Positions 28,906 to 46,108 of a stretch of DNA of 64,000 nt are shown in pieces. This DNA is from Rhodococcus sp. Leaf278. GTDB lineage: Bacteria; Actinomycetota; Actinomycetes; Mycobacteriales; Mycobacteriaceae. The notes under the pieces were generated by a model. That model did not search any database. It had not been told where the DNA came from and saw only the letters and a list, made by a program, of their open reading frames with translations. Made by a program: the position numbers and the translations under genes. Where the stretch lies: positions 307,879 to 371,878 of the forward strand of contig NZ_LMRR01000002.1 of the NCBI RefSeq assembly GCF_001426085.1. The letters are read 5' to 3'. Within the stretch, counting starts at the first letter, position 1. Each line of letters begins with the position of its first letter.

Positions 28906-28949
28906 CGTCGAATCCTGTTCGGTGTCTGTCGGCGGCAGCGAGCGGAAGG

Positions 28950-31033: not shown

Positions 31034-31167
31034 GGTCCTGGCACTCTCCGTCCTGATGTGATGTCCTTCACAAGGACACCACCGACATCCAGAGTGCACA
31101 AGTGATGACTTCGAGACTGAGCAGCGTGCACAATATTGCGAGTCGACGGAGCTACAGGAAGTGCGCA
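31034..31167. promoter_or_regulatory. Divergent bkd / lrp promoter region
   Basis: 134 bases between E1 alpha and the Lrp gene. GTGCACAA occurs twice in the same orientation (about 31095 and 31126), the second followed by TATTGC to give a dyad around CAATATTG. These are plausible binding sites for the adjacent Lrp regulator. Confidence 0.4.
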
Positions 31168-31647
31168 ATGACCGATTTGGACAAGACCGACGCCAAGCTT
31201 CTCCTCGCCCTCTGCTCGAAGCCTCGCGCCACCGGGGTCGAACTCGCCACGACACTGGGCTTGTCGCGCAACACCGTCCAGGCGCGTCTCGGTCGATGGG
31301 ACGACAAGGGCTCACTCACCCCGATCGATCACCGCATCCCACCGAAGTCGCTGGGGCGACCCCTGCAGGCGTTCGTCACCGCACGGGTCAATCAGCACAT
31401 GCTGGCCGCGGTCACCGAGAATCTCCGCACCATCCCCGAGGTACTCGAGGTGTTCGGACTGTCCGGAGCTGCAGATATGCACATCCGCATCGCCGCCGTC
31501 GACGCCGACGACCTGTATCGCATAGCCGGCTTGATTCTCGAGATACCCGGAGTCGAGCGCACCAACATGTCCATCGCCATGTCGGAATTGATCCAATACC
31601 GCACCAAGCCGTTGCTCGAACAGCTCGCCGAAGACGGCCGACGCTGA
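31168..31647 (+). CDS. Lrp/AsnC-family regulator of the bkd genes
   Basis: Regulator of 159 residues: N-terminal helix-turn-helix (GVELATTLGLSRNTVQARLGRWDDKG) and RAM domain (VFGLSGAADMHIRIAAVDADDLY). The ATG at 31168 has an AGGAAG site; the frame upstream to 31102 lies in the promoter region. It is divergent from bkdA and upstream of valine dehydrogenase in the same direction. Lrp-type activators that respond to branched-chain amino acids control bkd operons elsewhere (BkdR of Pseudomonas), which supports that role here. Confidence 0.88.
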   Translation: MTDLDKTDAKLLLALCSKPRATGVELATTLGLSRNTVQARLGRWDDKGSLTPIDHRIPPKSLGRPLQAFVTARVNQHMLAAVTENLRTIPEVLEVFGLSGAADMHIRIAAVDADDLYRIAGLILEIPGVERTNMSIAMSELIQYRTKPLLEQLAEDGRR

Positions 31648-31813
31648 GCAGGCAGACCAGCTCTGCCAGACCGATTCGCTCGCCACCGTGCAAGATGCAT
31701 GATCTCGGCAACGGCGGTTGACCAGCGTGCACGTTCACGGCAGCCTACGACGGACATGATCCCGGATACCACCCATTTCCGGTACCGCCGCCTCACCACC
31801 GAAAGAGACGCCT

Positions 31814-32923
31814 GTGTCCGTCGTTGCCGACCGCCCCGCCGCCGTGACCACCCCGCCCGACCACCTGCAGTCAGGTGTCTTCGATCGTTCCGACATGCCG
31901 CGCGACTCCGCGCACGAGCGTGTCGTGTTCTGCCAGGATCGCGACACCGGGCTGCGCGCGATCATCGCGGTGCATTCCACGACCCTGGGACCGGCGCTCG
32001 GTGGAACGCGCTTCTACCCCTACGCATCCGAGCAGGATGCGCTGACCGATGTACTGCGGCTCTCCCGCGGAATGACGTACAAGGCAGCCGTCGCGGGCGT
32101 CGATCTCGGCGGCGGAAAAGCCGTGATCCTCGGTGATCCCAACGCCATCAAGACCCCGACGCTGTTGAACGCATACGGTCGATTCGTCGAGTCCCTCGGC
32201 GGAACCTACGTCACCGCAGGCGATGTGGGCACCAACAGCAACGATCTCGACATCATCGCCGAAGAGACGGCGCACGTCGTCGGCAAGAACACCACCGCGG
32301 GCGGCACCGGAGACAGCGGTCCGCAGACCGCACTCGGAGTCTTCCTGTCACTCCGGGCGGCAGCCGAATCGGTCTGGGGCTCCGACGATCTGACCGGCAA
32401 GCGCGTCGGCGTCGAGGGGGCAGGCAAGGTGGGGTACAACCTCGTGGCCCTGCTTCGTGACGCCGATGCCGAGGTGATCGTCAGTGACTCCTACCCACCC
32501 GCCCTCGATCGCATCGCCCTGGATTTCCCCGGGGTCACCATCGGTTCCGACATCATCGGTGCGGATGTCGACGTCTACGCACCGTGCGCCATGGGCGCCA
32601 CCCTCGACGCCTCCTCGGTAGCCCGATTGACGGCGTCCATCGTCTGCGGCGCGGCCAACAACCAGCTGCTCACACCCGACGTCGAAGCGATGCTGGCGGC
32701 GCGCGGAATCGTGTGGGTACCGGACTACGTCGCCAACGCCGGCGGCCTGATCCAGGTGGAAGGCGAACTGCGCGGCAAGGATTCGGCCCAGGTGATGGCC
32801 ACGATCGGGAAGATCCGCGACACCGTCTCCGGCATCTTCGCCATCGCGCGTGCCGAGGGCATTCTGCTGGGAGCCGCAGCCGATCGTCTGGCCGAAGACC
32901 GGATCGCCGCCGCGCAGGGCTGA
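31814..32923 (+). CDS. vdh: Valine (leucine/phenylalanine-type) dehydrogenase
   Basis: NAD-dependent amino acid dehydrogenase of 369 residues, the Glu/Leu/Phe/Val family. The catalytic region has GPALGGTRFYPY, LSRGMTYKAAVAGVDLGGGKAV with the active-site Lys, and TAGDVGTNSNDLDII. The Rossmann loop is VGVEGAGKVGYNLV. It deaminates valine, leucine or isoleucine to the 2-oxo acids that the divergent Bkd complex oxidises. The GTG start follows GAAAGAG. In actinomycetes the enzyme in this context is valine dehydrogenase; exact substrate preference is inferred. Confidence 0.9.
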   Translation: MSVVADRPAAVTTPPDHLQSGVFDRSDMPRDSAHERVVFCQDRDTGLRAIIAVHSTTLGPALGGTRFYPYASEQDALTDVLRLSRGMTYKAAVAGVDLGGGKAVILGDPNAIKTPTLLNAYGRFVESLGGTYVTAGDVGTNSNDLDIIAEETAHVVGKNTTAGGTGDSGPQTALGVFLSLRAAAESVWGSDDLTGKRVGVEGAGKVGYNLVALLRDADAEVIVSDSYPPALDRIALDFPGVTIGSDIIGADVDVYAPCAMGATLDASSVARLTASIVCGAANNQLLTPDVEAMLAARGIVWVPDYVANAGGLIQVEGELRGKDSAQVMATIGKIRDTVSGIFAIARAEGILLGAAADRLAEDRIAAAQG

Positions 32924-32929
32924 GAGCGG

Positions 32930-33013
32930 GCCGGCACGTGTCGCTCCACTCTGGGCCGTCGATCGGGGTTTTCCGCACGGACGGTCGCAGAGTGGAGCGC
33001 TACGTGCACCGGC
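32930..33013. repeat. Long imperfect palindrome between vdh and gabD
   Basis: CGCTCCACTCTG (32942-32953) pairs exactly with CAGAGTGGAGCG (32988-32999). Outer arms GCCGGCACGTGT and TACGTGCACCGGC extend the pairing with bulges, and the loop is 34 bases. It lies between convergent genes and can act as a bidirectional terminator. Its outer GCACGTG recalls the other palindromes but the inner arms differ. Confidence 0.5.
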
Positions 33014-34464
33014 TACTGCAGCGCGATGTACTTGGTCTCGAGGTATTCCTCGATGCCCTCCGACCCGCCTTCGCGCCCGAAGCCCGATTCCTTGACGCCA
33101 CCGAACGGGGCAGCCGCGTCCGAGATCGCACCGCGATTGACCCCGACCATGCCGGTGTCCAGAGCCTCCGACACCCGGAGGGCGCGGTCGAGGTTCTCGG
33201 TGTAGAAGTACGCCACCAACCCGTAACGGGTGTCGTTGGCGGCCCCCACCGCCTCGTCCTCGGTGTCGAATCCGATCACGGCCGCGACGGGTCCGAAGAT
33301 CTCGTCCTGCAACAGATTCGCATCCGCCGGGATACTGTCGAGAACCGTCGGCGTGTAGAAGAATCCAGGTCCGTCCGGCACCGTGCCGCCCGTGCGCACC
33401 CGAGCACCCTTCGCGACGGCATCGTCGACCAAGGCTGCGACCGTTCTACGCTGTTTGTCGTTGATGAGCGGCCCGATGTCGGTGCCCTCTCGGTCACCCG
33501 CACCGACCGTCAAGGCCTCGATTCGCGCCGTCAATTTCGTGGTGAATTCCTCCCGCACCGAGTTCGCGACATACAGGCGGTTGGCTGCCGTGCAGGCCTC
33601 GCCGCCGTTGCGCATCTTCGCGAGCATTGCCCCGTCCACGGCCGCGTCGATATCCGCGTCGTCGAACACGATGAAGGGGGCATTGCCACCGAGCTCCATC
33701 GACGTCCGCAGCAAACGGTCGGCTGCGCTGCGTACCAACAGCTTTCCGACTCCGGTCGATCCGGTGAACGTGACCTTCCTCAGTCTCGGGTCGTCCATCA
33801 GCGGTCCGGTGACCGCCGCAGCGTCGGAGGCCGGAAGTATCGAGAGCACCCCGCTGGGCAACCCCGCATCGGCGAACACCTGCCCGAGAAGGAGCATCGT
33901 GAGCGGAGTGTCCTCGGCCGGCTTGACGATGACGGTGCATCCGGCAGCCAGGGCGGGCCCGATCTTGCGCGTTCCCATGGCCAACGGAAAGTTCCACGGG
34001 GTGATGGCCAGCACCGGGCCGACGGGCATCTTGGTCACCAGAATTCGGCCGTTGCCTGCCGGCGCAGGGGTGTACCGTCCGCCGATCCGAACGGCTTCCT
34101 CGCTGAACCAGCGTAGGAATTCGCCGCCGTAGTTCACTTCACCGCGGCTCTCCGCCAACGACTTCCCCATTTCGAGGGTCATCAACAAAGCGAAATCGGC
34201 GGCGCGCGCCTGCAGCAGGTCGAAGGCACGCCGCAGAATCTCCGCCCGCTCCCGGGCCGGAGTTGCCGCCCACGCTCCCTGTGCCGCAGCCGCCAGATCG
34301 AGCGCGGTGATCCCGTCGGCCGCCGTGGCGTCGGCGACGGTGGTCAACTCCTCGCCGGTCGCCGGGTTCAGTACCGAGAATCGGGCACCCGACGCCGACG
34401 GAGACTGGGCTCCGCCGAGCCAGAGATCGGTGGGCAGCGAGGCGATCAAATCCTGAGCCGACAT
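33013..34464 (-). CDS. gabD: Succinate-semialdehyde dehydrogenase
   Basis: Aldehyde dehydrogenase of 483 residues. It has ITPWNFPLAMGTRKIGPALAAG, the general base Glu in TSMELGGNAPFIVF, and the catalytic Cys in NGGEACTAANRLYV. The C-terminus FGGVKESGFGREGGSEGIEEYLETKY is typical of GabD. It oxidises succinic semialdehyde to succinate, and may also take glutarate semialdehyde. The ATG at 34464 lies 1 base after the gabT stop codon, so the two are one operon. It completes GABA breakdown. Confidence 0.92.
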   Translation of the reverse strand: MSAQDLIASLPTDLWLGGAQSPSASGARFSVLNPATGEELTTVADATAADGITALDLAAAAQGAWAATPARERAEILRRAFDLLQARAADFALLMTLEMGKSLAESRGEVNYGGEFLRWFSEEAVRIGGRYTPAPAGNGRILVTKMPVGPVLAITPWNFPLAMGTRKIGPALAAGCTVIVKPAEDTPLTMLLLGQVFADAGLPSGVLSILPASDAAAVTGPLMDDPRLRKVTFTGSTGVGKLLVRSAADRLLRTSMELGGNAPFIVFDDADIDAAVDGAMLAKMRNGGEACTAANRLYVANSVREEFTTKLTARIEALTVGAGDREGTDIGPLINDKQRRTVAALVDDAVAKGARVRTGGTVPDGPGFFYTPTVLDSIPADANLLQDEIFGPVAAVIGFDTEDEAVGAANDTRYGLVAYFYTENLDRALRVSEALDTGMVGVNRGAISDAAAPFGGVKESGFGREGGSEGIEEYLETKYIALQ

Positions 34465-34465
34465 G

Positions 34466-35830
34466 TCAGTTCCCCTGTGCCACAGAGCGAAGCGCACCTT
34501 CGAGGACGGTGAGCGCGTCGTCCAACAGCTCGTCGGACATCACCAGGGGCGGCAGCAAGCGGATGACGTTGCCGTAGGTACCGCACGTCAACACGATCAC
34601 CCCGGCCTCGAGTGCCGCAGCCGCAACGGCTTTGGTGGCCTCGGGGTTGGGCTCGCGTCCACCGGGCACAACCAGCTCGACGGCCAGCATGGCGCCGCGT
34701 CCGCGAATGTCACCGATGATGGAGACGTCCGGAGTCAACGCATGCAGTCGGTCGAGCACGATGCGTTCGATCTCGCGGGCGCGGGCATTGAGGTCGAGCG
34801 TCTCCATCTGCTCGATGGACGCCAGTGCGGCAGCGCACGCGACAGGATTGCCGCCGTACGTCCCGCCGAGTCCGCCGGGGTGCACGGCGTCGATCAGGTC
34901 GGCGCGGCCCGTGACCGCAGCCAGCGGCATTCCGCCCGCGATGCCCTTCGCCATGGTGATCAGGTCCGGCACGACGCCCTCGTGCTCACTGGCGAACCAG
35001 GCACCGGTTCGGGTGAATCCGGATTGCACCTCGTCGGCGATGAAGACGACGTCGTTCTCGCGCGCCCAGTTCACCAGTGCAGGCAGGAAACCCTCGGCCG
35101 GTACGACGAAGCCGCCCTCACCCTGAATCGGCTCGATGAGGATGGCCGCGAGATTGGCTGCGCCCACCTGCTTCTCGATGACCGAGATCGCTCGTGCGGC
35201 AGCCTGCGCGCCGGTGACCGTAGAACCGTCGGCGTTGAGTCCTTCCCGGAAGGGGTAGGACATCGGGGCCCGATAGACCTCGGGAGCGAACGGCCCGAAA
35301 CCGCTCTTGTACGGCATCGACTTCGAGGTCAGTGCCATCGTCAGGTTGGTGCGGCCGTGGTAGGCGTGGTCGAACACGGCGACCGCTGTGCGTCCGGTGG
35401 CGTGCCGGGCGATCTTGACCGCATTCTCGACTGCCTCGGCACCGCTGTTGAACAGGACCGTGCGCTTGTCGTGATCTCCGGGGGTGAGCTCGGCCAACTT
35501 CTCGGCAACGGCGATGTAGCCCTCGTACGGCGCGATCATGAAGCAGGTGTGAGTGAAGTGCGCGACCTGATCCTGCACGGCGGCAACGACAGCCGGGTTC
35601 GAGGCACCGACGGTCGTCACGGCGATTCCGGCACCGAGATCGATCAGCGAGTTTCCGTCCACATCGACGACGACGCCGCCGTCCGCGTCCGCCACATAAA
35701 CCGGCAGCGTCGACGCAACGCCTGCACCGACGACGGCCTTGCGGCGCTCCGCCAATGCCGACGACTTGGGTCCGGGGAACGCGGTGACAATGTTGCGCTC
35801 TTGCGGAAGTCGGTACTCGATCGAGGCCAT
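34466..35830 (-). CDS. gabT: 4-aminobutyrate aminotransferase
   Basis: Class III PLP aminotransferase of 454 residues. The cofactor region is NSGAEAVENAVKIAR, FIADEVQSGFTRTGAWF and the Schiff-base Lys in LITMAKGIAGGMPLAA. It transfers the amino group of GABA, or 5-aminovalerate, to 2-oxoglutarate. The ATG at 35830 has GAAAGGTG upstream; longer frames run into the divergent promoter. It is the first gene of gabT-gabD and is divergent from a PucR-type regulator. Confidence 0.92.
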   Translation of the reverse strand: MASIEYRLPQERNIVTAFPGPKSSALAERRKAVVGAGVASTLPVYVADADGGVVVDVDGNSLIDLGAGIAVTTVGASNPAVVAAVQDQVAHFTHTCFMIAPYEGYIAVAEKLAELTPGDHDKRTVLFNSGAEAVENAVKIARHATGRTAVAVFDHAYHGRTNLTMALTSKSMPYKSGFGPFAPEVYRAPMSYPFREGLNADGSTVTGAQAAARAISVIEKQVGAANLAAILIEPIQGEGGFVVPAEGFLPALVNWARENDVVFIADEVQSGFTRTGAWFASEHEGVVPDLITMAKGIAGGMPLAAVTGRADLIDAVHPGGLGGTYGGNPVACAAALASIEQMETLDLNARAREIERIVLDRLHALTPDVSIIGDIRGRGAMLAVELVVPGGREPNPEATKAVAAAALEAGVIVLTCGTYGNVIRLLPPLVMSDELLDDALTVLEGALRSVAQGN

Positions 35831-35950
35831 GGTCGCACCTTTCATCTGGGCTGGTCCAGCAAGTATGCGGCTGTTCGATCGCCCGGTCGGCTGCCATTTC
35901 GTCCATCTCATAGGCGGATCACACTCCGTTTCGTCGACCCTGGGATTACA

Positions 35951-37444
35951 GTGCGAGATGTGAGCGTGCAGATGTCCTGGCTGCTGAGGCAGCGACACCT
36001 TCGACTGAGTCATCGCGGCGGGCCCGAGCGCAGTTCTGAGTCCATCACCTTCGCGCAAGCAACCGAACTGATCGACCCCAGCCCCTGGCTATCGGGTGGC
36101 GAGCTGATTCTGACGACCGGGCTGGGCTTCGACTCCGACGGTCCCGCGCTCGACACCTACGTTCGCACCCTGTCGACCGCGGGTGTCGCGTGCCTCGGAT
36201 TCGGAACCGGTCTGTCCCACAGCACTATTCCCCAACATATTCTCGACGCCGCAGACGACGTGGGCCTGCCGGTCGTGGAAGTTCCGTACGACACTCCGTT
36301 CGCTGCCGTCATACGGGCGGTCATGAAGCGAATCTCCGAGCAGGAGTACGAGCAGGTCGTTCGCGCTGCGTCGGTGCAGAACCGCATCACCCGGGCAGCT
36401 CTGCACGGCGGCGTCGACGCGATCGTCCGGGAACTCGCCGTTGCGACATCGACATCGGTGGCATTGATCGGCCGGCGCACCGAATCGTTTCATCCGACAG
36501 ACGCGTCGAACCTCGTCGACCAGGCTCGTGACATCGCTCGCAGCATCCGTCCGTCGGCGTCGCCCGCCACGGTCTCGGTGAGCGAACCGGGTCGAACGGT
36601 GAGTCTGCATTCTGTCCCGATCACCGGCAGCGCTTCGACTTTCCTGGCCATCCGCACCACTGGACCGATGACCGGCGTCGAGCAAATCCTGCTCGGGCAT
36701 GCCGTGTCACTGGTGACGCTCGAACTCGAGAAGCCGGCGCGCCTGCGCGCCGAACAGTCCAGGCTCAACACCCTGGCGCTCGGACTGCTCCTCGACGGAC
36801 ACCTGACCACGGACGTTCCCAGCTACCTCACCGATGCCGCCGACGAGGACTCTCTCATCAGGGTGGCAGTGGTTCGCGGACCATCCGAACGCATCGTCGA
36901 CGCGATCGATGCCGAGTGTCGGCTCCGGGGGCGGCCCACCTTCGCCCGAACCACCGACACCGGCTGCGCGCTTCTGCTCCGCGGCTCCGACGACATCACA
37001 TTCGTTGCGCGCCTACTGGATTCGTTACCCCGATCGACGTGCGCCGGCCTCAGCGCCCGCCTGCACATCACCGAGTCCCCCGCAGCGCTCCGACAAGCCT
37101 CGCTCGCCTGCGCGGCTGCCGGATCCCACGATCGCGTCGTCGAATTCACCGGATCGATGTTGTTGGCCTCCGAACCGGTGCAGGAGTCGTTGCGTGCCAT
37201 GGCCGCGGTGACCATCGCCGTGCTGGCCGAGTACGACCGCGTCCACACCGCCGATCTGGTGGCGTCACTTCGGGCCTTCCTCGAGGCCAACGGGCACTGG
37301 GAGACCGCGGCCGCGCAATTGTCCGTTCACCGGCACACGCTCCGTAACCGCATCACGCGCTGCGAGGAACTACTCGCGGTGGATCTGACATCCGCGCGGG
37401 TGCGCGCGGAGTTGTTGCTCTCACTGCTTGCCACGACGGCGTGA
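35951..37444 (+). CDS. PucR-family regulator, GabR-like
   Basis: Regulator of about 497 residues. The N-terminal domain (VRDVSVQMSWLL through DPSPWLSGGELILTTGL) is the PucR ligand domain, the middle is GGDEF-like and degenerate, and the C-terminal helix-turn-helix is AAAQLSVHRHTLRNRITRCEELL. I set the start at the GTG at 35951, which gives the family N-terminus VRD; GTG at 35960, GTG at 35966 and ATG at 35972 are alternatives. A PucR-type GabR activates gabTDP in Corynebacterium glutamicum, so control of the divergent gabTD operon is likely. Confidence 0.85.
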   Translation: MRDVSVQMSWLLRQRHLRLSHRGGPERSSESITFAQATELIDPSPWLSGGELILTTGLGFDSDGPALDTYVRTLSTAGVACLGFGTGLSHSTIPQHILDAADDVGLPVVEVPYDTPFAAVIRAVMKRISEQEYEQVVRAASVQNRITRAALHGGVDAIVRELAVATSTSVALIGRRTESFHPTDASNLVDQARDIARSIRPSASPATVSVSEPGRTVSLHSVPITGSASTFLAIRTTGPMTGVEQILLGHAVSLVTLELEKPARLRAEQSRLNTLALGLLLDGHLTTDVPSYLTDAADEDSLIRVAVVRGPSERIVDAIDAECRLRGRPTFARTTDTGCALLLRGSDDITFVARLLDSLPRSTCAGLSARLHITESPAALRQASLACAAAGSHDRVVEFTGSMLLASEPVQESLRAMAAVTIAVLAEYDRVHTADLVASLRAFLEANGHWETAAAQLSVHRHTLRNRITRCEELLAVDLTSARVRAELLLSLLATTA

Positions 37445-37472
37445 CCGTCGGCAATCGTGTCAGGATCTGTCG

Positions 37473-38183
37473 ATGACCACGCCTCGTCCTGAACCCCACA
37501 TCGCTGTCGCTACCGCGAAGTCGGTTCGACTCGGGGTACTCCTGGCCGCAGTCGGGGGGTTTCTCGACGCCTACACCTACGTCACTCGCGGCGGTGTGTT
37601 CGCAGGTGCGCAGACCGGAAACGTGGTCCTTCTCGGCGTCGACGTCGCCGGCGGTCGGTGGGTCGAAGCGCTGGCGTTCCTACCCCCGTTGACGGCATTC
37701 GTACTCGGCGTTGCGACCGCGGAGTTCATCGCCTTACCCGCGGTGGCAAAGATCGTGCGACGGCCGGTGCGCGCGGTGCTGGTGTTCGAGATCCTGGTGG
37801 TCCTGATCGTCGGCTTTCTCCAGGCCACCGTGCCCGACGCCGTGGTCGCGGTCATCCTCGCGCACGTGGCGGGCGTGCAGGTGACCACCTTCCGTGTGTT
37901 GGTGGATTCGCCGTTCAACACCACGATGACTACCGGAAACCTCCGCAGCATGGCGATGGCGGCATTCCATCGGGTCGTCGACCACGATCGCGAGGCCGGC
38001 ACGCGGGCACGACGGTTCGGCGCGGTGATCTCCGGGTTTCTCGGCGGGGCGATGGTGGGCGCAGCTGCGGTAGAACTGTTCGGGCTACGAGCGATCTGGG
38101 TCGTAGCCCTGATGTTGACGATCGCGTTGGCACTGTTCGTGTTCGACGAGCGAGCACCGCGGTCGCTGCCGCCGAAGGGCTAG
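37473..38183 (+). CDS. DUF1275 (YoaK-type) membrane protein
   Basis: Membrane protein of 236 residues with about six hydrophobic segments. It has the DUF1275 signature VGGFLDAYTYVTRGGVFAGAQTGN and a second TTFRVLVDSPFNTTMTTGN block. The family has been proposed to transport small metabolites, without firm assignment. It follows the PucR gene by 28 bases in the same direction. Its stop codon overlaps that of the monooxygenase gene on the other strand (CTAG). Confidence 0.85.
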   Translation: MTTPRPEPHIAVATAKSVRLGVLLAAVGGFLDAYTYVTRGGVFAGAQTGNVVLLGVDVAGGRWVEALAFLPPLTAFVLGVATAEFIALPAVAKIVRRPVRAVLVFEILVVLIVGFLQATVPDAVVAVILAHVAGVQVTTFRVLVDSPFNTTMTTGNLRSMAMAAFHRVVDHDREAGTRARRFGAVISGFLGGAMVGAAAVELFGLRAIWVVALMLTIALALFVFDERAPRSLPPKG

Positions 38184-39865
38184 TCGCCCAATCGAAGTGG
38201 CGCAATGGCCTCGAATACGTCGCCCGGTCCCGGATTACCCTCGGCCGAAGAACCGCCCAGATGATGCACGACGCCCCACACCGCGTTCAGGGCCGTATGA
38301 ATTGCACCTTCCGCCCAGCCCGCGGTCCACGAGATGTCGTCGCCGGCCAGGAATATCCCTCGGTGTCGGGGGTCGAGCTCGTCCTGCACGAAGTGGGTGA
38401 ACAGTCTCTCCTGATAGCGGTAGTGACCCGGCAAGTTCGCCTTGAAGGCCCCCATGAAATCGCGTTCGGTTTCCCAGGACAGCGTCACCGGCGTCGAGAT
38501 GATGTGGCTGCGGAAATCGACGCCGGGATAGATCTCCTCGAGCGAGCGCAGCATGATGTTCATCCGCTCGGTCGGGTCGAGGGCGAGGAGCTTGAGCGAA
38601 TCGTCGGACCAGGTGTAGGACAGGCAGATCAGCCCGGGCTTGCCCTCGCCTTGTTCGAGCAGGTAGGTGCCGCGGCTCATTCGGTCGGTCAGCGTCATGC
38701 TGACCAGGTCTCGCCCGGTGACCGGATCCTTGTCCTTCCAGAACGGCCGATCGACGAGTGCGAACACTTTGGTCGACCCCATGTAGTGGGTGCGTTCGAT
38801 GGCGGTCCAGTGATCGATGGGGAACAGATCGTCGTCACATCTGATGTTGCTGAGCAACATCCAGCTCTGCGCAGTCACAACGGCAGCGGCATAGGTTCGG
38901 ATGTTGCCGCGGTCGTCGTGGATCGTGGTGCCGCCGTCGGTGCGCCTGATCTCGGTGACCCGCGACATCGTGGTGCCGCCGTTCAGGGAGGACACCGACG
39001 TACCCGCGGGCCAGTGCGCCATGTTCGTGGGCGAGTCGGTCCACAACCGCATCGGCAGTTGCTGTGAACCGCCGACGATTCCGCGATGGTGATCGTCCGC
39101 TGCCGTGATGACGACGCGAAGGATCTCGAGAATCGAGTTGGGATAATCGGTGTCCCAACCACCCGTTCCGAAACCCACCTGCCCGAACAACTCTCGCATC
39201 CGGAACGACGAAAAGTGCTCGGACGCAGCGAGGAAGCCGTAGAAGGTCTGATCGTCGAACTTCACGATCAGCTCGTTCCATATTCGCTTGATCTCGGCGA
39301 CGTCCCGCTTGCGAATGGCACGCTGGAGCGGAATCAGTTCGGCATGGTCCTCGAGCGTCCGGTTCCACGCGTCGGCAACCTCGGCGAACATCGGCGGAAG
39401 GTCGTCGAGCTTGCGGGCATAATGGCTCTCCCCCTTGAGGTCGATCACCGTACTGGGAGTCACCTCGGCCAGCGGGTTCGGAAACGGTGTCGTCTCGAGC
39501 CCGACGGCGTCGAGATAGTGGAACAGCGTGGTCGACGACGGCGGAAACCGCATCGCACCCATCTCGGCCACCACACCGGGGTGCCCCTCGAACGGTACCG
39601 AGCGCATGCGCCCACCGATCCGATCCGACTCGTACACCACCGGTTCGAGACCGAGCGCGAGCAACTCGCGCGCGACGACCATCCCCGCGAGTCCGCCGCC
39701 GATCACCGCGACCTGGGTACCGAGGGCCGACTCCGGAATGCTCCCGAGACCGGCCGGATGCGCGAGGTAGTCGTCGTACGCGAACGGGAAATCCGGGCCG
39801 AACATGGTGAGCGGCTGATCGTTCTCGACTTCGATCGAACTGTCCGGGGTGACGGGTGTGGTCAT
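38180..39865 (-). CDS. Tryptophan/arginine/lysine 2-monooxygenase-like flavoenzyme
   Basis: Flavin amine oxidase-fold protein of 561 residues. The FAD loop is VAVIGGGLAGMVVAREL (G56-G61), followed by YESDRIGGRM. It shows the marks of the amino acid 2-monooxygenase group (tryptophan 2-monooxygenase IaaM, lysine 2-monooxygenase DavB) and differs from simple amine oxidases: AEMGAMRFPPSSTTLFHYLD, CLSYTWSDDSLKLLAL, MGAFKANLPGHYRYQERLF and FLAGDDISWTAGWAEGAIHTALN. Such enzymes turn an L-amino acid into the amide one carbon shorter plus CO2. The next gene of the operon encodes the amidase for that amide (ATGA overlap). Arginine is the favoured substrate because of the adjacent ureohydrolase; lysine is the alternative. 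Confidence 0.88.
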   Translation of the reverse strand: MTTPVTPDSSIEVENDQPLTMFGPDFPFAYDDYLAHPAGLGSIPESALGTQVAVIGGGLAGMVVARELLALGLEPVVYESDRIGGRMRSVPFEGHPGVVAEMGAMRFPPSSTTLFHYLDAVGLETTPFPNPLAEVTPSTVIDLKGESHYARKLDDLPPMFAEVADAWNRTLEDHAELIPLQRAIRKRDVAEIKRIWNELIVKFDDQTFYGFLAASEHFSSFRMRELFGQVGFGTGGWDTDYPNSILEILRVVITAADDHHRGIVGGSQQLPMRLWTDSPTNMAHWPAGTSVSSLNGGTTMSRVTEIRRTDGGTTIHDDRGNIRTYAAAVVTAQSWMLLSNIRCDDDLFPIDHWTAIERTHYMGSTKVFALVDRPFWKDKDPVTGRDLVSMTLTDRMSRGTYLLEQGEGKPGLICLSYTWSDDSLKLLALDPTERMNIMLRSLEEIYPGVDFRSHIISTPVTLSWETERDFMGAFKANLPGHYRYQERLFTHFVQDELDPRHRGIFLAGDDISWTAGWAEGAIHTALNAVWGVVHHLGGSSAEGNPGPGDVFEAIAPLRLGD

Positions 39866-40683
39866 CGGTCGGTCTCCTGCTCGGCCCGCGAGGGTCCTGT
39901 CGGGTAGAGGTCGCTACGGCGATCGGCCAGGTGGGTATTGACGGCGCGTGATCGTTGGAGTTCGGACGGATCCAGATCCACCGTCAACAGCTGTTCGTGC
40001 ACGCCTGCACGCGCGATGTCGGTGCCGTCCGGTGCAACGGCGCACGTGAGTCCGCAGTACGTCAGACTCGCCTCGAATCCGCAGCGGTTCACGTAGGTGA
40101 TGAACAGTTGACTCTCGTACGCCCGCGTCGGGACCACGTGGGTTGCGATGATCTCGAACGGCGTCATCAAACCGGTCGGGACGATCAACCAGTGCGTTCC
40201 GGCATCGGCGTGGGCACGCACCGTCTCCGGGAATTCGACGTCGTAGCAGGTGAGCAGGCCGCAGCGCAGACCTCCGAAGTCGAACTGCACCAACAGTTCC
40301 GGCCCGGGAGTGAAATGCGTGCGATCGAGATCACCGAACAAATGGGTCTTGCGGTACCGCGCGATCGAGCGCCCGGAAGAATCCACCACCTGCACCGAAT
40401 TGAACACGGAATCACCGCTGCTCTCGGGATACCCGTACACGATCGCAACAGTTCTCGATCGCGCGATCGCGGCGATGCGCTCGAAGATCGGACCGTCGAA
40501 CGGTTCGGCGCGCTCGCTCACGAGATCCCCGATGTCGTAGCCACTGGCCGACATCTCCGGCGTGACCAGAATGGATGCCCCTGCTGCGGACGCGCTCGCC
40601 GCGGCAGCGTCGATCGCCGAGAGGTTGCTCTCGACATCGCCGGAGAACTCCGGACCCTGGAACAGCGCTGCGGTGACGCTCAC
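39862..40683 (-). CDS. Carbon-nitrogen hydrolase (amidase), DavA-like
   Basis: Nitrilase-superfamily amidase of 273 residues with the Glu-Lys-Cys triad: Glu in VTPEMSASGYDIG, Lys in RYRKTHLFGDLDR and Cys in LLTCYDVEFPE. The RKTHLFGDLDR and IVYGYPES blocks match 5-aminovaleramidase (DavA) and guanidinobutyramidase-type proteins. I set the start at the GTG at 40683 because it overlaps the TGA of the regulator gene (GTGA); the upstream 16 residues have no family match. It would hydrolyse the amide made by the 2-monooxygenase, giving 4-guanidinobutyrate or 5-aminovalerate plus ammonia. Confidence 0.88.
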   Translation of the reverse strand: MSVTAALFQGPEFSGDVESNLSAIDAAAASASAAGASILVTPEMSASGYDIGDLVSERAEPFDGPIFERIAAIARSRTVAIVYGYPESSGDSVFNSVQVVDSSGRSIARYRKTHLFGDLDRTHFTPGPELLVQFDFGGLRCGLLTCYDVEFPETVRAHADAGTHWLIVPTGLMTPFEIIATHVVPTRAYESQLFITYVNRCGFEASLTYCGLTCAVAPDGTDIARAGVHEQLLTVDLDPSELQRSRAVNTHLADRRSDLYPTGPSRAEQETDR

Positions 40684-41300
40684 GAGGAAGGACCCTGTGT
40701 CGTCTCGGGTAACGCCGGGGCCAGAACCCACAACACCTGTGCGCCACCGCCGCCCTCGCTGCGAAAACTGTGCGGTCGCCTGGGCGAGAAGGTGAACGCG
40801 TCGCCCGCACCGAGCAGAACATCGTCACCGCCGAAGGTGCCGTCGGGGTCCGCCTCGAAGGTCACCCGCACCTGGCCGGACAAGACGTGCACGAAGGTGA
40901 CGTCCAACGGCAGGGTGTATGCCTCCGCGCCGCTGCCGCCGCCCTCCTCGATATCGCCCAGCAGTACCTGCACACGCCGCTCCCCCGCCGGAGTCAACAG
41001 ATATTCCGTCATCGCCTCACCACCGAACACGATGCGCGGCAACGACTGTGCTCGAACGACGTCACCCGCCGGGGCATCGTCGAACAGCGAGCCGACCGGT
41101 ACGTCGAGCGCAGCACAGACCCGCACCAACGACGCGACCGACGCATTCACCTGATCACGCTCGAGCTTGGAGAGGTACCCCTTGGTCACCCCGCACGTAT
41201 CGGCGAGCGCGTCCAGGGTCAACCGTTTCTTCTGCCGTGCCTCCTTGAGCCGCGCGCCGATACGCGGTGCGTCGTTCTCGACCGAAGCAGCAACCGACAC
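40680..41300 (-). CDS. XRE-cupin transcription regulator
   Basis: A 206-residue regulator. An N-terminal XRE helix-turn-helix ([28 protein letters not shown]) is joined to a C-terminal cupin ([16 protein letters not shown], then [20 protein letters not shown]) that probably binds the pathway substrate or an intermediate. The GTG start has GAGAGGCG upstream. It is first in the operon with the amidase and monooxygenase and divergent from the ureohydrolase gene, so one regulator sits between both arms of the pathway. Members of this type often repress amine and amino acid catabolism genes. Confidence 0.87.
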
Positions 41301-41415
41301 CGTTATCGCCTCTCAGGAAACTCGTGTTGACAAGATCGAGTATCAGAGTAACGCTTGCCGGGCGAACTGGTCGACCTTCGTCACCGGAGCCCTCGAAATT
41401 CGAAAGGAATTCTCG

Positions 41416-42375
41416 ATGAACCTGAGCAATCCCGAGCACCCACCGATCGGTCCGGTCGACGCCACCAAGGTCCCCCGCTACGCCGAGCCGACCACCTTCG
41501 CGCGTCTGCCCCGTCTCGACGAGGTGTCCAGGGCCGACGTGACCATCCTCGGCGTCCCGTTCGATTCCGGCGTGAGTTACCGCCCGGGAGCGCGTTTCGG
41601 CCCGGGTCACATCCGAGCGGCCTCCAAACTGTTGCGGCCCTACAACCCTGCGCTGAAAGTGTCACCCTTCGCCCGTCAACAGGTGGCGGACTTCGGCGAC
41701 ATCGGGGTCAATCCGTTCGACATCAGCGAGGCCCTGACCACGGTGCACGACGCGGTGACGGACTTGCGCGCGGACGGCTCGTCGGTTCTCACCCTCGGCG
41801 GCGACCACACCATCGCTCTGCCGATCCTGCGATCGCTCGCACGCGATCACGGGCCGATAGCGGTGCTGCACTTCGATGCTCACCTCGACACGTGGGACAC
41901 GTACTTCGGCGCGCCCTACACACACGGGACGCCGTTCCGGCGAGCCAGCGAGGAAGGGCTCATCGACCTCGAACGCTCGCAGCACATCGGCATTCGCGGC
42001 CCTCTCTACAGTGAGCAGGACCTCGAGGACGACCGGGTGCTCGGCTTCCAGGTGATCCGCTCCGACGACTACGAGGTCGACGGCGTGGCGAGCATCGTGG
42101 AGCGGATGCGTCGCCGCCTCGACGGTGGCCCGGTGTATGTCTCGGTCGACATCGACGTACTCGACCCGGCACACGCTCCGGGCACCGGTACTCCCGAAGC
42201 CGGAGGAATGACCTCTCGCGAACTGCTGAACACACTGCGTGGACTCGTCGGACTGAATGTGGTCGGTGCCGACATCGTCGAGGTCGCTCCCGCGTACGAC
42301 CACGCCGAGATCACCGGAATAGCGGCGGCCCACGTTGCGTACGAACTGCTTTCGGTGCTGGCCCTCAACCGATAG
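41416..42375 (+). CDS. Agmatinase / guanidinobutyrase-type ureohydrolase
   Basis: Ureohydrolase (arginase fold) of 319 residues with a binuclear metal site: [21 protein letters not shown] and [17 protein letters not shown]. The family includes agmatinase, guanidinobutyrase and proclavaminate amidinohydrolase; chain length and motifs fit guanidinobutyrase or agmatinase equally. It releases urea from a guanidino compound. No arginine decarboxylase is nearby, but a 2-monooxygenase and an amidase are, so 4-guanidinobutyrate to GABA is the best reading, and gabTD lie 6 kb away. The ATG at 41416 has GAAAGGAAT upstream. Confidence 0.88.
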
Positions 42376-42379
42376 AACG

Positions 42380-43279
42380 TCATCGCCGGGGCAACACCAG
42401 GATCGGCACCGGCGAATGGCGGATGATCTTGGTCGCCCGCGAACCGAGGAACACCCGAGCGATGGGCCCCAACGGTCCGGACGATCCGATGGTCAGTACT
42501 TCGCCGTCCTGCCAGTGCACTTCGTCGAGGGCTTCGCGCCAGCTGCCGGCCGAGGCCAGCTCCGTTGTCACCTGTTCGGCCGGAAGTCCCACCGCAACAG
42601 CGTCGTCCACCGCCGCGGTGAGTGCCTCGCTCAGCCCCCGGGCGAGTTCGGCGGCAACATCGTCCTCGGCACGCAGTCCGATCTCGGGTGGGTACATCGT
42701 CGCCCCGCGCACGACGAACGACGCCAATCGCAGTGCAATGCCCGCATCCCTGGCCAGTTCCGCGGTCGGTCCCACCACGCGCGAGGCCTCGCTGTCACCG
42801 GAGAACGCACAGGTGATCCGTGTCAACGTCGCACGTTCACGCATGCGATATCCGCGCGGAGCGAGCGCCACCGTCACCGGCGAGGAGTGCAGCAACTTGT
42901 CTGCGGTCGACCCGACGACCACCTGCCCGAGCGCCCCGTCGCCCGAGGAACCGAGAACCAGAACCGAAGCGGAGAGGTTCAGTGATGCTTCGGTCAACGC
43001 GGTCGACACCGAGCGATGCGCCAGACGATGGAACGATGCCGTGATGTCCGGGGCCCGGTCTTCGAGGTAGTGCCGGGCCTTCGCCTCGGACTCGGCGGCC
43101 GTCACCGCCGCCCAATCCGCGAACTCGGCATCGACGCGAGCCATGGACGGCGTGGACCACGGCTTGGGCACCACCGTCGCAACGTCGATATCGGTACCCG
43201 AAGACCGCGCGAGTTGGGCACCGAGGTCGAGGGCACCGACACTGCCCTTTCCCGGCGCGAAGGCGATCAGAACGCTCAT
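42380..43279 (-). CDS. Tandem universal stress protein
   Basis: Two UspA domains in 299 residues. Each ends with an ATP-loop-like segment: LVLGSSGDGALGQVVVGSTADKLL in the first and LTIGSSGPLGPIARVFLGSRATKII in the second (GxxG-x9-GS type), so nucleotide binding is likely. The ATG at 43279 overlaps the stop of the permease gene (ATGA). Usp proteins coupled to a transporter gene sometimes modulate it. It is convergent with the ureohydrolase gene with 4 bases between the stop codons. Confidence 0.88.
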   Translation of the reverse strand: MSVLIAFAPGKGSVGALDLGAQLARSSGTDIDVATVVPKPWSTPSMARVDAEFADWAAVTAAESEAKARHYLEDRAPDITASFHRLAHRSVSTALTEASLNLSASVLVLGSSGDGALGQVVVGSTADKLLHSSPVTVALAPRGYRMRERATLTRITCAFSGDSEASRVVGPTAELARDAGIALRLASFVVRGATMYPPEIGLRAEDDVAAELARGLSEALTAAVDDAVAVGLPAEQVTTELASAGSWREALDEVHWQDGEVLTIGSSGPLGPIARVFLGSRATKIIRHSPVPILVLPRR

Positions 43280-44718
43280 TCCGCGTCCTTTCCAACCGAT
43301 CGAAGCGCCGAATGATGTCGACCCCACAGGAAGTAGAACGCGAGAACCACGGCGAGCCAGAGCCCGAACCAGAACCAGGTGGTCCACCGCAGACCCGAGA
43401 GGATGTACACGCATGCAGCAACCGACAACACCGGCGTCACCGGGTAGCCCGGCACCTTGAACGGGCGCTCCAGCTCCGGCATCGTCCGACGAAGCACGAC
43501 AACCCCGATCGCCACGACGATGAACGCGACGAGCGTTCCTATCGAGACCAGATCGGCCAGCTTGTCCAGCGGAATGAACGCAGCGAGTATCGAGATGATC
43601 ACTGCGACCACGATCGTGTTGTTGACCGGGGTGTGCGTGCGCGGACTGACTTTGGCAAACGCCTTCGGCAACATGCCGTCTCGGCCCATGGCAAACAGAA
43701 TGCGTGTCTGCCCGTACATCGTCACCAGGGTCACCGAGAAGATCGAGATGACTGCGCCGGCCGCCAGAATCGTTGCCGGCCAGGCCTGCCCGGTGACGTT
43801 GCGGAGAATCTCGGCCAAGCCCGCTTCCTCCTGACCGGCGAAGGCGGTCCACGGCTGAGTCCCCAGAGCCGACACCGCGACCACGAGGTAGAAGACGATG
43901 ACGACGATGAGCGCCGCAATGATGGCCCGCGGCATGGTCTTCTGCGGATTCTTCACCTCGTCGCCCGCGGTGGACACCGCGTCGAGTCCGATGAACGAGA
44001 AGAAGATGGTGCCTGCGGCTGCCGTGACACCGGCAGTACCCAAGGGCATGAAATCGGAGAAGTTCCCCGAATCGAAGGCGGAGAATCCGACGACCGCGAA
44101 CAGTGCGAGCACACCGAGTTTGATGACGACCATGACCGCATTGACTGCAGCGGATTCACTGGCACCGCGAATGAGGAGCACTGCGCACAACACGATCAGC
44201 ACCACAGCAGGCAGGTTCATCACTCCCGGATCGGCGTCACCCGGTGCAGCGGACAACGCATGCGGGATGGTGAAACCGAAGAGATTGTTGAGCAGTTCGT
44301 TGAGATACCCGCTCCACCCCACCGCTACGGCGGCACTCGACACCCCGTACTCGAGCAGCAGACAGGCAGCGACCCCCATCGCGACCACCTCGCCCATCGT
44401 CACGTACGCGTACGAGTAGGTAGAGCCGGAAACCGGCACTGCCGACGCCATTTCGGCGTAACAGATAGCGGCGAGACCGGCCGCGATACCGGCCGCCAGG
44501 AACGAGAGCACCACCGCCGGACCGGCTTCCGGGACGGCGAGCGAGAGCACGAAGAAAATACCGGTGCCGATGGTGGCCCCGACTCCGAACATCGTCAGTT
44601 GGAACGTGCCGATGGTGCGTTCGAGCCCCCCGCTGCCCTGCTGATCGGGGTCCACGATCGGCTTCTTGCGGAGCAACTGTGATCGCAGCCCCGATGCGGG
44701 TCTCTTCGACGAAGTCAT
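43276..44718 (-). CDS. APC-family amino acid permease, CAT type
   Basis: Transporter of 480 residues with 12 or more hydrophobic segments. The APC signature MFGVGATIGTGIFFVLS and CYAEMASAVPVSGSTYSYAY identify it, and the general pattern is that of cationic amino acid transporters. The ATG at 44718 has GGGAGAG 8 bases upstream, better than the ATG at 44733. It is divergent from a PucR-type regulator and coupled to the Usp gene. In this context arginine, lysine or a related amine is the likely substrate. Confidence 0.88.
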   Translation of the reverse strand: MTSSKRPASGLRSQLLRKKPIVDPDQQGSGGLERTIGTFQLTMFGVGATIGTGIFFVLSLAVPEAGPAVVLSFLAAGIAAGLAAICYAEMASAVPVSGSTYSYAYVTMGEVVAMGVAACLLLEYGVSSAAVAVGWSGYLNELLNNLFGFTIPHALSAAPGDADPGVMNLPAVVLIVLCAVLLIRGASESAAVNAVMVVIKLGVLALFAVVGFSAFDSGNFSDFMPLGTAGVTAAAGTIFFSFIGLDAVSTAGDEVKNPQKTMPRAIIAALIVVIVFYLVVAVSALGTQPWTAFAGQEEAGLAEILRNVTGQAWPATILAAGAVISIFSVTLVTMYGQTRILFAMGRDGMLPKAFAKVSPRTHTPVNNTIVVAVIISILAAFIPLDKLADLVSIGTLVAFIVVAIGVVVLRRTMPELERPFKVPGYPVTPVLSVAACVYILSGLRWTTWFWFGLWLAVVLAFYFLWGRHHSALRSVGKDAE

Positions 44719-44893
44719 GGTCGGCTCTCCCACCGTGGAGGCGAACGTGCGGATCGGCTGATTGTGCTCCCGGATGGTGCCTGTCGCATATCGAACACGC
44801 CGCGAAAGGCTCGATTCACGCAGCGACTCGTTTCGGGACTGCCACCGCGATGCCTACGATTGAGCTTCGATCGGATGGAGGACGGGCGAACAC

Positions 44894-46108
44894 ATGGCCA
44901 CACAGGATGGCGGGGCACGGCTCGATACGGTCGCAGGGCTGGCCGCGTCGGACGCCGGCGGCCTCGACGTCGTGTTCCTCGGCAACTTTCTCGACGTCCT
45001 CACCGATGCGGTGAACGCGGGTGTTCCGCTCAGACGACAGCAGCTCAGAGCGTTCCGGGCACAGGGTGATGCTGCTGCGCGTGCCGGAGTCGCATTGCGC
45101 GCACTGCTCGACCTGTATCTGTCCTCGGCATGGCGGTTGTGGCGAGAACTGCCCGCAGTGACGGCAGCCGCCGACAATCCCGCCGGCGTCGTGACGGCAG
45201 GCGAGGTGATGCTGCGGGCCGTCGACGACGCAGTGGCCGAACTCGCCGAGGGCTTTCAACTCGCCCGTCGCACGCTCGTTCGTGCCGAGGTACTCGCCCG
45301 CCGCGAGTTCGTCGACGATCTGCTGTCCGGAACATCCGACGTCGCCGGGGTACTCGGACGCGCCCAGACGTTCGGACTGGATCTGTCGAGTCCGCACGCG
45401 GTAGCGGTGGTCACGTCGAGCAAGCCGTTCACCGACGCGAGTTCGGCGATCGGGCTCGTCGAGCGCAGCGTGCAGGGCAGCAAGGGTGACGCCGAGTTGC
45501 TCGTCGCAACCAAACAGGGCCGGTTGATTCTGGTATTCCCGGCACCTGACCGCGAGGCCGTCGAGTACGTGCTCACCAGAGCGGGACGTGTGCTCGGTAC
45601 GTCTGCACGGACCCCGACCGACTCCGTCGACCTCCGTCGCGACGGCGAGTACGGAAGGACGCAGATCGGAGTCGGTCGCCCACGCGGAGGAGCAGCGGGC
45701 GTCGCCGCGTCGTACCGGGAGGCGCTCGACGCTCTCGAACTCGCCGCCGCGCTCGGGCTCGATACGCCGGTGGTCGACGCCCGAGATCTACTCGTCTACC
45801 GAGTTCTCATCAGTGACCGAGCCGCCATCGCCGATCTGGTCGACACGTTGCTGACGCCGCTTCTGGTCGCCCGCGGTGGTGCGGGTCCGTTGCTGGAAAC
45901 GTTGCAGGTGTACTTCGACACCGGCGCGAACTCCGCATCCACCGCGCGGCGCATGCACTTGTCGGTGAGAGCGGTCACGTACAGATTGTCACGAATACAT
46001 GATTTGACCGGCCAGGATGTGGGCAACCCCGTCGAGGCATTTGCGCTGCATACAGCCGTGCTCGGTGCCAGGTTGCTCGATTGGCCCGGCGGTCGCGTGC
46101 CGTCATGA
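44894..46108 (+). CDS. PucR/CdaR-type regulator
   Basis: Regulator of 404 residues with a C-terminal PucR helix-turn-helix (ARRMHLSVRAVTYRLSRIHDLTG), a degenerate GGDEF-like middle (LVATKQGRLILVFPAP) and a helical N-terminus in place of the classical PucR ligand domain. It is divergent from the permease gene, so it probably controls uptake of the substrate of the catabolic island. The ATG at 44894 has a weak GGAGGA site about 16 bases upstream. Confidence 0.82.
   Translation: MATQDGGARLDTVAGLAASDAGGLDVVFLGNFLDVLTDAVNAGVPLRRQQLRAFRAQGDAAARAGVALRALLDLYLSSAWRLWRELPAVTAAADNPAGVVTAGEVMLRAVDDAVAELAEGFQLARRTLVRAEVLARREFVDDLLSGTSDVAGVLGRAQTFGLDLSSPHAVAVVTSSKPFTDASSAIGLVERSVQGSKGDAELLVATKQGRLILVFPAPDREAVEYVLTRAGRVLGTSARTPTDSVDLRRDGEYGRTQIGVGRPRGGAAGVAASYREALDALELAAALGLDTPVVDARDLLVYRVLISDRAAIADLVDTLLTPLLVARGGAGPLLETLQVYFDTGANSASTARRMHLSVRAVTYRLSRIHDLTGQDVGNPVEAFALHTAVLGARLLDWPGGRVPS

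What the first reader, a model, noticed from the sequence alone, without database searches (positions are those of the whole stretch)
33013..46108. Contiguous genes for an amino acid 2-monooxygenase pathway ending in succinate
One 13-kb stretch holds a tryptophan/lysine/arginine 2-monooxygenase-like flavoenzyme (38180), a DavA-like amidase (39862), an agmatinase/guanidinobutyrase-type ureohydrolase (41416), GabT and GabD (34466, 33013), an APC permease (43276) and three regulators (PucR, XRE-cupin, PucR). In order they fit arginine to 4-guanidinobutyramide, 4-guanidinobutyrate, GABA, succinic semialdehyde and succinate. No arginine decarboxylase, succinyltransferase or deiminase is present. 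Lysine via 5-aminovalerate is a rival reading for the monooxygenase, amidase and GabTD part, but leaves the ureohydrolase unexplained.
Basis: partly seen in the sequence, partly recalled or inferred. Interest (0 to 1): 0.72.

Follow-up and report, generated by a model that had tools for sequence, protein, structure and literature searches.

The report
Arginine-to-succinate oxidation gene cluster
This Rhodococcus-family genome carries a cluster of neighbouring genes that is predicted to break arginine down to succinate by an oxygen-using route, and relatives share a DNA box in front of the genes for its first three steps that likely switches them together, which would help tell arginine enzymes from look-alikes labelled as lysine or tryptophan enzymes.

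Summary
In detail: all named genes are there. The arginine reading is supported but untested at the bench. The flavoenzyme (38180-39865) is a basic-amino-acid 2-monooxygenase relative; its nearest solved kin is a Pseudomonas lysine/ornithine/arginine enzyme, but its pocket reads A256/H260/G516 where that clade reads C/Q/A. Among 65 monooxygenase genomes (394 sampled), the H-T-G-W pocket comes with the ureohydrolase in 60 of 60, other pockets in 0 of 5. One C/Q/A locus (L147) has glutaryl-CoA dehydrogenase and a CoA-transferase beside it, as a lysine route would. The ureohydrolase is the genome's only arginase-family protein and keeps the arginine that caps guanidinobutyrate's carboxylate. New: a box, GGAAACNNNNGTTGACA, between xre and the ureohydrolase, found (up to one mismatch) in 32 of 34 loci that keep xre and 0 of 48 without it; in 11 relatives a second copy precedes the permease or amidase gene that leads to the monooxygenase. 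Likely one XRE regulon. Against: curated models call the ureohydrolase agmatinase, and chain-length and lysine/ornithine preference remain open. GabT/GabD sit with their own PucR regulator. The pathway is long known; the catabolic gene set, regulon and pocket rule seem new.

The parts
33013..34464 (-). gabD-type succinate semialdehyde dehydrogenase (start chosen by me; mechanical ORF starts at 34497)
   Evidence: SSADH model 544 bits, below its cut-off of 646
34466..35830 (-). gabT, GABA transaminase (start at ATG 35830 chosen by me; mechanical ORF starts at 36058)
   Evidence: 795 bits, over cut-off 639; sequence of start region
35951..37444 (+). PucR-type regulator divergent from gabTD, GabR-like by domains and place (start uncertain)
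   Evidence: PucR and HTH_30 domains, no GGDEF-like domain listed; GabR of C. glutamicum is divergent from gabT (PMC7652997 passages)
37428..38183 (+). DUF1275 protein, probably a passenger
   Evidence: PF06912; found in only 7 of 80 related loci, the seven closest
38180..39865 (-). amino acid 2-monooxygenase, predicted arginine 2-monooxygenase
   Evidence: 727 bits to 3we0; pocket residues; tree
39862..40731 (-). nitrilase-superfamily amidase, predicted 4-guanidinobutyramidase (start uncertain)
   Evidence: PF00795; Glu59, Lys128, Cys162 in 153 of 153 homologues; overlaps the monooxygenase start in ATGA
40680..41300 (-). XRE-cupin regulator, predicted to bind the box
   Evidence: HTH_3 and Cupin_2; box occurs only where xre occurs at up to one mismatch
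41315..41332 (+). operator-like box AGGAAACTCGTGTTGACA between xre and the ureohydrolase gene
   Evidence: only match without mismatch in the genome; conserved in relatives
41416..42375 (+). ureohydrolase, predicted 4-guanidinobutyrase
   Evidence: PF00491, only one in genome; 281 bits to 3-guanidinopropionase, 271 to guanidinobutyrase; R74
42380..43258 (-). universal stress protein, link to the pathway unclear (start uncertain)
   Evidence: PF00582
43276..44733 (-). amino-acid permease, possible arginine importer
   Evidence: AA_permease_2; no NCBIfam transporter model over its cut-off
44894..46108 (+). PucR/CdaR-type regulator divergent from the permease
   Evidence: GGDEF_2 and HTH_30

Best explanation
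This is a gene cluster that likely lets the bacterium use arginine by oxidative decarboxylation: a flavin monooxygenase would turn arginine into 4-guanidinobutyramide, an amidase would make 4-guanidinobutyrate, a ureohydrolase would release urea and GABA, and GabT and GabD would carry GABA to succinate. Shown: the genes and their families, the overlap of amidase and monooxygenase, the pocket residues, the tree, the co-occurrence with the ureohydrolase, the box and where it occurs, and a urease gene elsewhere in the genome. Inferred: the substrates of all enzymes, that XRE binds the box, that it represses (the box holds a -35-like TTGACA) and is released by arginine or a product, that the permease imports arginine, and that the first PucR-type protein activates gabTD as GabR does in Corynebacterium glutamicum.
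For: Pocket: W237, D240, Y417, W419, F474, W517 of the Pseudomonas enzyme kept, A256/H260/G516 changed. Pocket type H-T-G-W with ureohydrolase in 60 of 60 genomes (10 of 10 genus codes), other types 0 of 5 (5 genus codes). C/Q/A rows form one clade without the window. The C/Q/A locus L147 has glutaryl-CoA dehydrogenase and CoA-transferase neighbours. L140, with the same G516, sits with ureohydrolase, ligase, acyltransferase and PKS parts as in clusters that use arginine monooxygenase. On a Tsukamurella plasmid ureohydrolase, permease, amidase and monooxygenase are four consecutive genes, the first three overlapping. Box: 43 of 44 sites upstream of pathway genes, 32 of 34 xre loci, 0 of 48 others. 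R74 equals GbuA R72. Other arginine routes searched are missing; urease present.
Against: No activity data. The characterised relative prefers ornithine and lysine over arginine (kcat/Km 200, 74, 24). NCBIfam agmatinase models pass their cut-offs for the ureohydrolase, the best solved match is 3-guanidinopropionase, and Tyr163 matches that enzyme, though also the butyrate-specific A. niger enzyme. In most sampled genomes with both genes the ureohydrolase lies far from the monooxygenase. Rows with A/H/G are not shown to be one clade. 38 of the 65 monooxygenase genomes share one genus code. gabT and the window's permease lack the box.
Confidence: 0.84

Rival explanations
1. Lysine route: the monooxygenase is a lysine 2-monooxygenase, the amidase a 5-aminovaleramidase, GabT and GabD act on 5-aminovalerate and glutarate semialdehyde, and the ureohydrolase is a neighbour with another job.
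For: Nearest solved enzyme acts on lysine; GabT/GabD-type proteins are shared by both routes; some relatives are named lysine 2-monooxygenase in source databases.
Against: C/Q/A pocket absent; the box ties ureohydrolase and monooxygenase genes; 60 of 60 co-occurrence; no glutarate genes among the cluster genes scanned.
Confidence: 0.07
2. Ornithine route: the monooxygenase makes 4-aminobutyramide from ornithine and the amidase gives GABA directly, the ureohydrolase serving another guanidino acid.
For: The Pseudomonas relative has its highest kcat/Km with ornithine (200 against 74 and 24); GABA would feed GabT/GabD.
Against: Leaves the strict pairing and shared box of the ureohydrolase unexplained; G516 widens rather than narrows the pocket by the reasoning of PMC5832979.
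Confidence: 0.05
3. Agmatine route: the ureohydrolase is an agmatinase making putrescine, unrelated to the monooxygenase.
For: Two NCBIfam agmatinase models pass their cut-offs (306 of 302; 233 of 174); the plasmid relative is annotated speB agmatinase.
Against: No arginine decarboxylase of three families; R74 is Arg as in guanidino-acid hydrolases, where the two agmatinases shown have Ala and Trp by my reading of the alignments; the human enzyme of that name does not split agmatine.
Confidence: 0.03
4. Tryptophan 2-monooxygenase with indole-3-acetamide hydrolase, making auxin.
For: Several source databases name relatives tryptophan 2-monooxygenase; close relatives include Rhodococcoides fascians.
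Against: 207 bits to the solved tryptophan enzyme against 727; W237 and D240 kept where that enzyme has Phe and Val.
Confidence: 0.01

Closest known systems
Arginine 2-monooxygenase (decarboxy-oxidation) pathway (EC 1.13.12.1, recalled), and the arginine monooxygenase of Streptomyces violaceusniger used for azalomycin (Hong et al. 2013, seen only as cited in PMC5082578, PMC4737276, PMC10322714)
   Same: Monooxygenase, then amide hydrolase giving 4-guanidinobutyrate
   Different: There the acid is activated to a CoA ester for a polyketide; here a ureohydrolase, GabT and GabD are predicted to degrade it. The S. violaceusniger sequence itself was not compared.
L-amino acid oxidase/monooxygenase of Pseudomonas sp. 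AIU 813 (3we0), lysine 2-monooxygenase
   Same: Same family, 727 bits, charged-end binding Asp and aromatic cage kept
   Different: C254, Q258, A515 are A256, H260, G516; C/Q/A rows form their own clade; a C/Q/A locus lies beside glutarate genes
Guanidinobutyrase GbuA and 3-guanidinopropionase GpuA of Pseudomonas aeruginosa
   Same: Same family, metal-site motifs and the carboxylate-facing Arg (R72 of GbuA)
   Different: Loop residue is Tyr as in GpuA and the A. niger enzyme, not Met as in GbuA; different gene neighbours and regulator (P. aeruginosa context recalled)
gabTDP with GabR of Corynebacterium glutamicum (PMC7652997)
   Different: No permease directly after gabD; here next to the arginine-type genes

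Membership tests
Arginine 2-monooxygenase pathway | Flavin monooxygenase of the basic-amino-acid group with the acidic residue for the charged end | tested here: met
   727 bits to 3we0, D240 kept
Arginine 2-monooxygenase pathway | Activity on arginine giving 4-guanidinobutyramide | not testable with these tools
   needs enzyme assay
Arginine 2-monooxygenase pathway | Amidase linked to the monooxygenase | tested here: met
   ATGA overlap; amidase in 77 of 80 related loci
Arginine 2-monooxygenase pathway | Ureohydrolase for 4-guanidinobutyrate linked to the monooxygenase | tested here: met
   linkage and box; substrate itself untested
Arginine 2-monooxygenase pathway | GABA transaminase and succinate semialdehyde dehydrogenase at hand | tested here: met
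   GabT over its cut-off; GabD best match SSADH but under the cut-off
Lysine 2-monooxygenase (DavB type) | Membership of the clade of the Pseudomonas enzyme with C/Q/A pocket | tested here: not met
   A256/H260/G516; outside the clade
Lysine 2-monooxygenase (DavB type) | Glutarate genes nearby | tested here: not met
   none among the genes of 33-46 kb; present in L147; genome-wide not searched
Tryptophan 2-monooxygenase (IaaM) | Phe and Val at the pocket positions of W235 and D238 | tested here: not met
   W237 and D240
Guanidinobutyrase (GbuA) | Arg facing the substrate carboxylate (R72) | tested here: met
   R74; 61 of 61 homologues held, some loci overlapping
Guanidinobutyrase (GbuA) | Loop residue that sets chain length (Met161) | tested here: inconclusive
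   Tyr163, as in GpuA Y157 and the butyrate-specific A. niger Y218
Agmatinase route | Arginine decarboxylase in the genome | tested here: not met
   three decarboxylase families; only LysA found
GabR-type control of gabTD | Divergent PucR-type regulator without GGDEF-like domain | tested here: met
   binding not testable

The most novel reading that the evidence does not exclude
Actinobacterial arginine 2-monooxygenases can be told from lysine 2-monooxygenases by three pocket residues (A/H/G for C/Q/A), and in several genera they form, with a guanidinobutyrase, an amidase and often a permease, a compact arginine regulon governed by one XRE-cupin regulator through the box GGAAACNNNNGTTGACA: a whole catabolic route and its switch hidden under the labels tryptophan 2-monooxygenase, lysine 2-monooxygenase and agmatinase.
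Probability: 0.62. Interest if true: 0.6.

Novelty: new member of a known kind. Interest (0 to 1): 0.5.

Why it matters
The arginine monooxygenase pathway has long been known biochemically (recalled), but in the open papers I searched (listings, with passages of some papers) I saw its genes treated only in polyketide biosynthesis, not as a catabolic gene set with a regulator. The pocket rule would correct names of many sequences, the box makes the regulon searchable, and since the other arginine routes searched are missing here, the cluster would be this genome's main way to use arginine.

Tried and rejected
Tryptophan reading: rejected on score and pocket. Agmatine reading: disfavoured by missing decarboxylases and R74. 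Riboswitch in 31-47 kb: none at Rfam gathering scores. tRNA as a sign of an island: none in the window; G+C of 2-kb steps runs only from 0.61 to 0.68. Box before gabT or the window's permease: no further site up to 3 mismatches in the window (about 0.9 such sites are expected by chance), so these were not put in the XRE regulon.

Limits: neighbourhoods of Pseudomonas davB could not be reached (plasmid search gave no Pseudomonas). The lysine contrast rests on L147 and L148 and, for pocket and missing nearby ureohydrolase, on three alphaproteobacterial plasmid loci; only L147 shows glutarate genes, and of L148 only three proteins were scanned. The tree used 61 of 177 aligned rows, picked by me for spread; L153 has a very long branch and L154/L155 were the outgroup. 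The 235 rows overlap in content (proteins and loci of the same kin) and include one partial row and the five plasmid loci. The box was read from the same loci in which it was counted; the loci without xre, the reversed pattern and shuffled motifs are the controls. Co-occurrence uses the best monooxygenase per genome and E 1e-60 for the ureohydrolase, and is not corrected for kinship beyond the genus count. No structure prediction was run. Agmatine deiminase and arginine dehydrogenase or transaminase routes were not searched.
Full report
WHAT IS THERE. The window lies in a 5.72-Mb assembly of 45 contigs. The closest named loci by the monooxygenase are seven Rhodococcus / Rhodococcoides genomes at 94-97% identity. 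They form three head-to-head pairs: a PucR-type regulator against gabT-gabD; the ureohydrolase against xre-amidase-monooxygenase; a second PucR-type regulator against the permease and a universal stress protein. The amidase stop and the monooxygenase start overlap in ATGA and the amidase frame overlaps the end of xre, so these three look like one transcript (inferred). DUF1275 stands there only in the seven closest of 80 loci.

MONOOXYGENASE. The nearest solved protein is the L-amino acid oxidase/monooxygenase of Pseudomonas sp. AIU 813 (727 bits); the tryptophan enzyme follows at 207. A paper on its ligand complexes (PMC5832979; outline and passages) names the residues around the substrate. 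By my mapping through the alignment, R106, W237, D240, Y417, W419, F474 and W517 are kept. Asp238 of that enzyme, here D240, meets the charged end of Lys, Orn and Arg. Three neighbours differ: C254 is A256, Q258 is H260, A515 is G516. The paper ascribes wider pockets of the Trp and Phe enzymes to two changes, one of them Ala515 to Gly; the other (Trp235 to Phe) is absent here. A 227, H 231, G 231 of 235 rows on the window's side, against C 119, Q 120, A 119 of 120 rows found from the Pseudomonas enzyme. The three Q/A rows among the 235 are alphaproteobacterial plasmid loci (L088-L090). In a tree of 61 picked rows the 13 C/Q/A rows are one clade (SH-aLRT 100) without the window; the 41 A/H/G rows fall in two places and are not shown to be one clade. 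The characterised enzyme takes Lys, Orn and Arg (monooxygenase kcat/Km 74, 200, 24), so residues alone do not settle preference. C254I abolished monooxygenase activity there; what A256 does to the oxidase/monooxygenase balance is unknown.

TWO CONTRASTS. L147 and L148 are actinobacterial genomes whose enzyme carries C/Q/S/A and which have no ureohydrolase hit at E 1e-60. Around the monooxygenase of L147 lie the amidase, a GabT-like transaminase, a glutaryl-CoA dehydrogenase (508 bits to 3sf6), a LysR regulator, a class III CoA-transferase (305 bits to an unspecified family member, 269 to 9br7, succinate-hydroxymethylglutarate CoA-transferase, which I recall acts on glutarate) and a permease. 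That is what a lysine-to-glutarate route would need. L148 has amidase, GabT-like and aldehyde dehydrogenase genes nearby. L140 carries an A/Q/T/G/F enzyme with a ureohydrolase, an AMP-ligase, an acyltransferase, a PKS end with KR, carrier and thioesterase domains, and also an Orn/Lys/Arg-type decarboxylase; no amidase was found in it. This resembles marginolactone clusters, where arginine is converted to 4-guanidinobutyramide, 4-guanidinobutyrate and its CoA ester (PMC5082578 passages; PMC4737276 outline, part of a section and passages; PMC10322714 passages).

CO-OCCURRENCE. In 394 genomes of the class, 65 have the monooxygenase and 127 the ureohydrolase; 60 have both (Fisher p 4.8e-29, kinship not corrected; 38 of the 65 share one genus code). 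By pocket of the best copy: D-A-H-T-G-W 59 of 59 and D-L-H-T-G-W 1 of 1 with ureohydrolase; D-C-Q-S-A-W 0 of 2; types with F at 517 0 of 3. By genus code (read) this is 10 of 10 against 0 of 5. Distance is another matter: by my reading of the two tables the best copies lie within about 11 kb of each other in only 5 of the 60. Among the 80 named loci, 77 have the amidase, 36 the ureohydrolase, 13 a GabT at 69% identity or more. On a Tsukamurella plasmid ureohydrolase, permease, amidase and monooxygenase follow one another, the first three overlapping by four bases. L139, from another family, holds monooxygenase, amidase, xre, ureohydrolase, GabT and GabD matches together at 34-64% identity.

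UREOHYDROLASE. It is the only PF00491 protein of the genome. Best solved matches: 3-guanidinopropionase 281 bits, guanidinobutyrase 271, proclavaminate amidinohydrolase 245, agmatinases 211 and 191. GbuA R72 caps the neighbouring subunit's active site where it could meet the carboxylate (PMC9772407 passages). The window has R74 there, as do 61 of 61 homologues held, some from overlapping loci; I read Arg in GpuA, His in the proclavaminate enzyme, Ala and Trp in the two agmatinases shown. The loop residue is Tyr163 (61 of 61): Met161 in GbuA, Tyr157 in GpuA, Tyr218 in the butyrate-specific A. niger enzyme (PMC10833137 passages), so chain length stays open. NCBIfam agmatinase models pass their cut-offs; the human enzyme of that name did not split agmatine.

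THE SWITCH. The stretch between xre and the ureohydrolase (41301-41415) holds AGGAAACTCGTGTTGACA at 41315-41332. Genome-wide it is the only match without mismatch; three more have two, and the reversed control gives three hits at that level. In 82 loci (window, 80 named relatives, one plasmid) GGAAACNNNNGTTGACA with up to one mismatch occurs 44 times in the 34 loci with xre (0.72 Mb): 43 lie within 300 bases upstream of ureohydrolase, xre, permease, amidase or monooxygenase, in 32 of the 34 loci. It occurs 0 times in the 48 loci without xre (0.99 Mb) and 0 times reversed; of 200 shuffled motifs none marked more than one locus. At two mismatches the counts are 56 hits with 47 upstream in 33 loci, against 3 with 1 upstream without xre. 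The misses at one mismatch are L026 (none) and L032 (two mismatches). Eleven loci have two sites: the second is upstream of the permease (8) or the amidase (3) that leads to the monooxygenase. Five loci with ureohydrolase but no xre (L014, L019, L020, L021, L041) have no site at one mismatch. So ureohydrolase, amidase and monooxygenase are likely one regulon. As the box holds TTGACA I expect repression lifted by arginine or a product; untested. [quoted passage not shown] glutamicum (PMC7652997 passages).

REST OF THE GENOME. Arginine deiminase, AstA, OKR and pyruvoyl arginine decarboxylases were not found; the one PF02784 protein is LysA. Urease alpha is present, 889 bits over a cut-off of 680, so the urea would be usable.

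KNOWN AND NEW. The pathway is old knowledge (recalled), and its first enzyme is known from polyketide producers. My searches of open papers listed no catabolic gene cluster or regulator for it; papers outside that library were not seen, and supplements could not be read. I file it as a new member of a known kind, with the regulon and the pocket rule as the new parts.

Noticed in passing
   Followed up: no
L149, L150, L153: Monooxygenases with Phe in place of the cage Trp (W517), in genomes without a ureohydrolase hit; L150 has a LuxR-type regulator and an AMP-ligase nearby, L149 a penicillin-amidase-type gene.
   Followed up: partly
window 41416-42375 and related loci: The ureohydrolase is more conserved than its neighbours, for example 94-97% against 80-84% for the monooxygenase in L011-L013 and L016-L018.
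   Followed up: no
L014, L019, L020: Relatives without xre have a 67-69% relative of the window's second PucR-type regulator next to the ureohydrolase instead, as if the regulator had been exchanged.
   Followed up: no
G118, G266 and listed same-family genomes: Both sampled same-genus genomes and 18 listed same-family genomes lack the monooxygenase, so the cluster is patchy in the family.
   Followed up: no
window 27625-32923: Next to gabD lie genes that look by eye like a branched-chain keto-acid dehydrogenase (E2, E1 beta, E1 alpha), an Lrp/AsnC regulator and a leucine-dehydrogenase-like protein.
   Followed up: no
L147: An actinobacterial lysine-type locus with monooxygenase, amidase, transaminase, glutaryl-CoA dehydrogenase and CoA-transferase: a likely complete lysine-to-glutaryl-CoA cluster.
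   Followed up: partly
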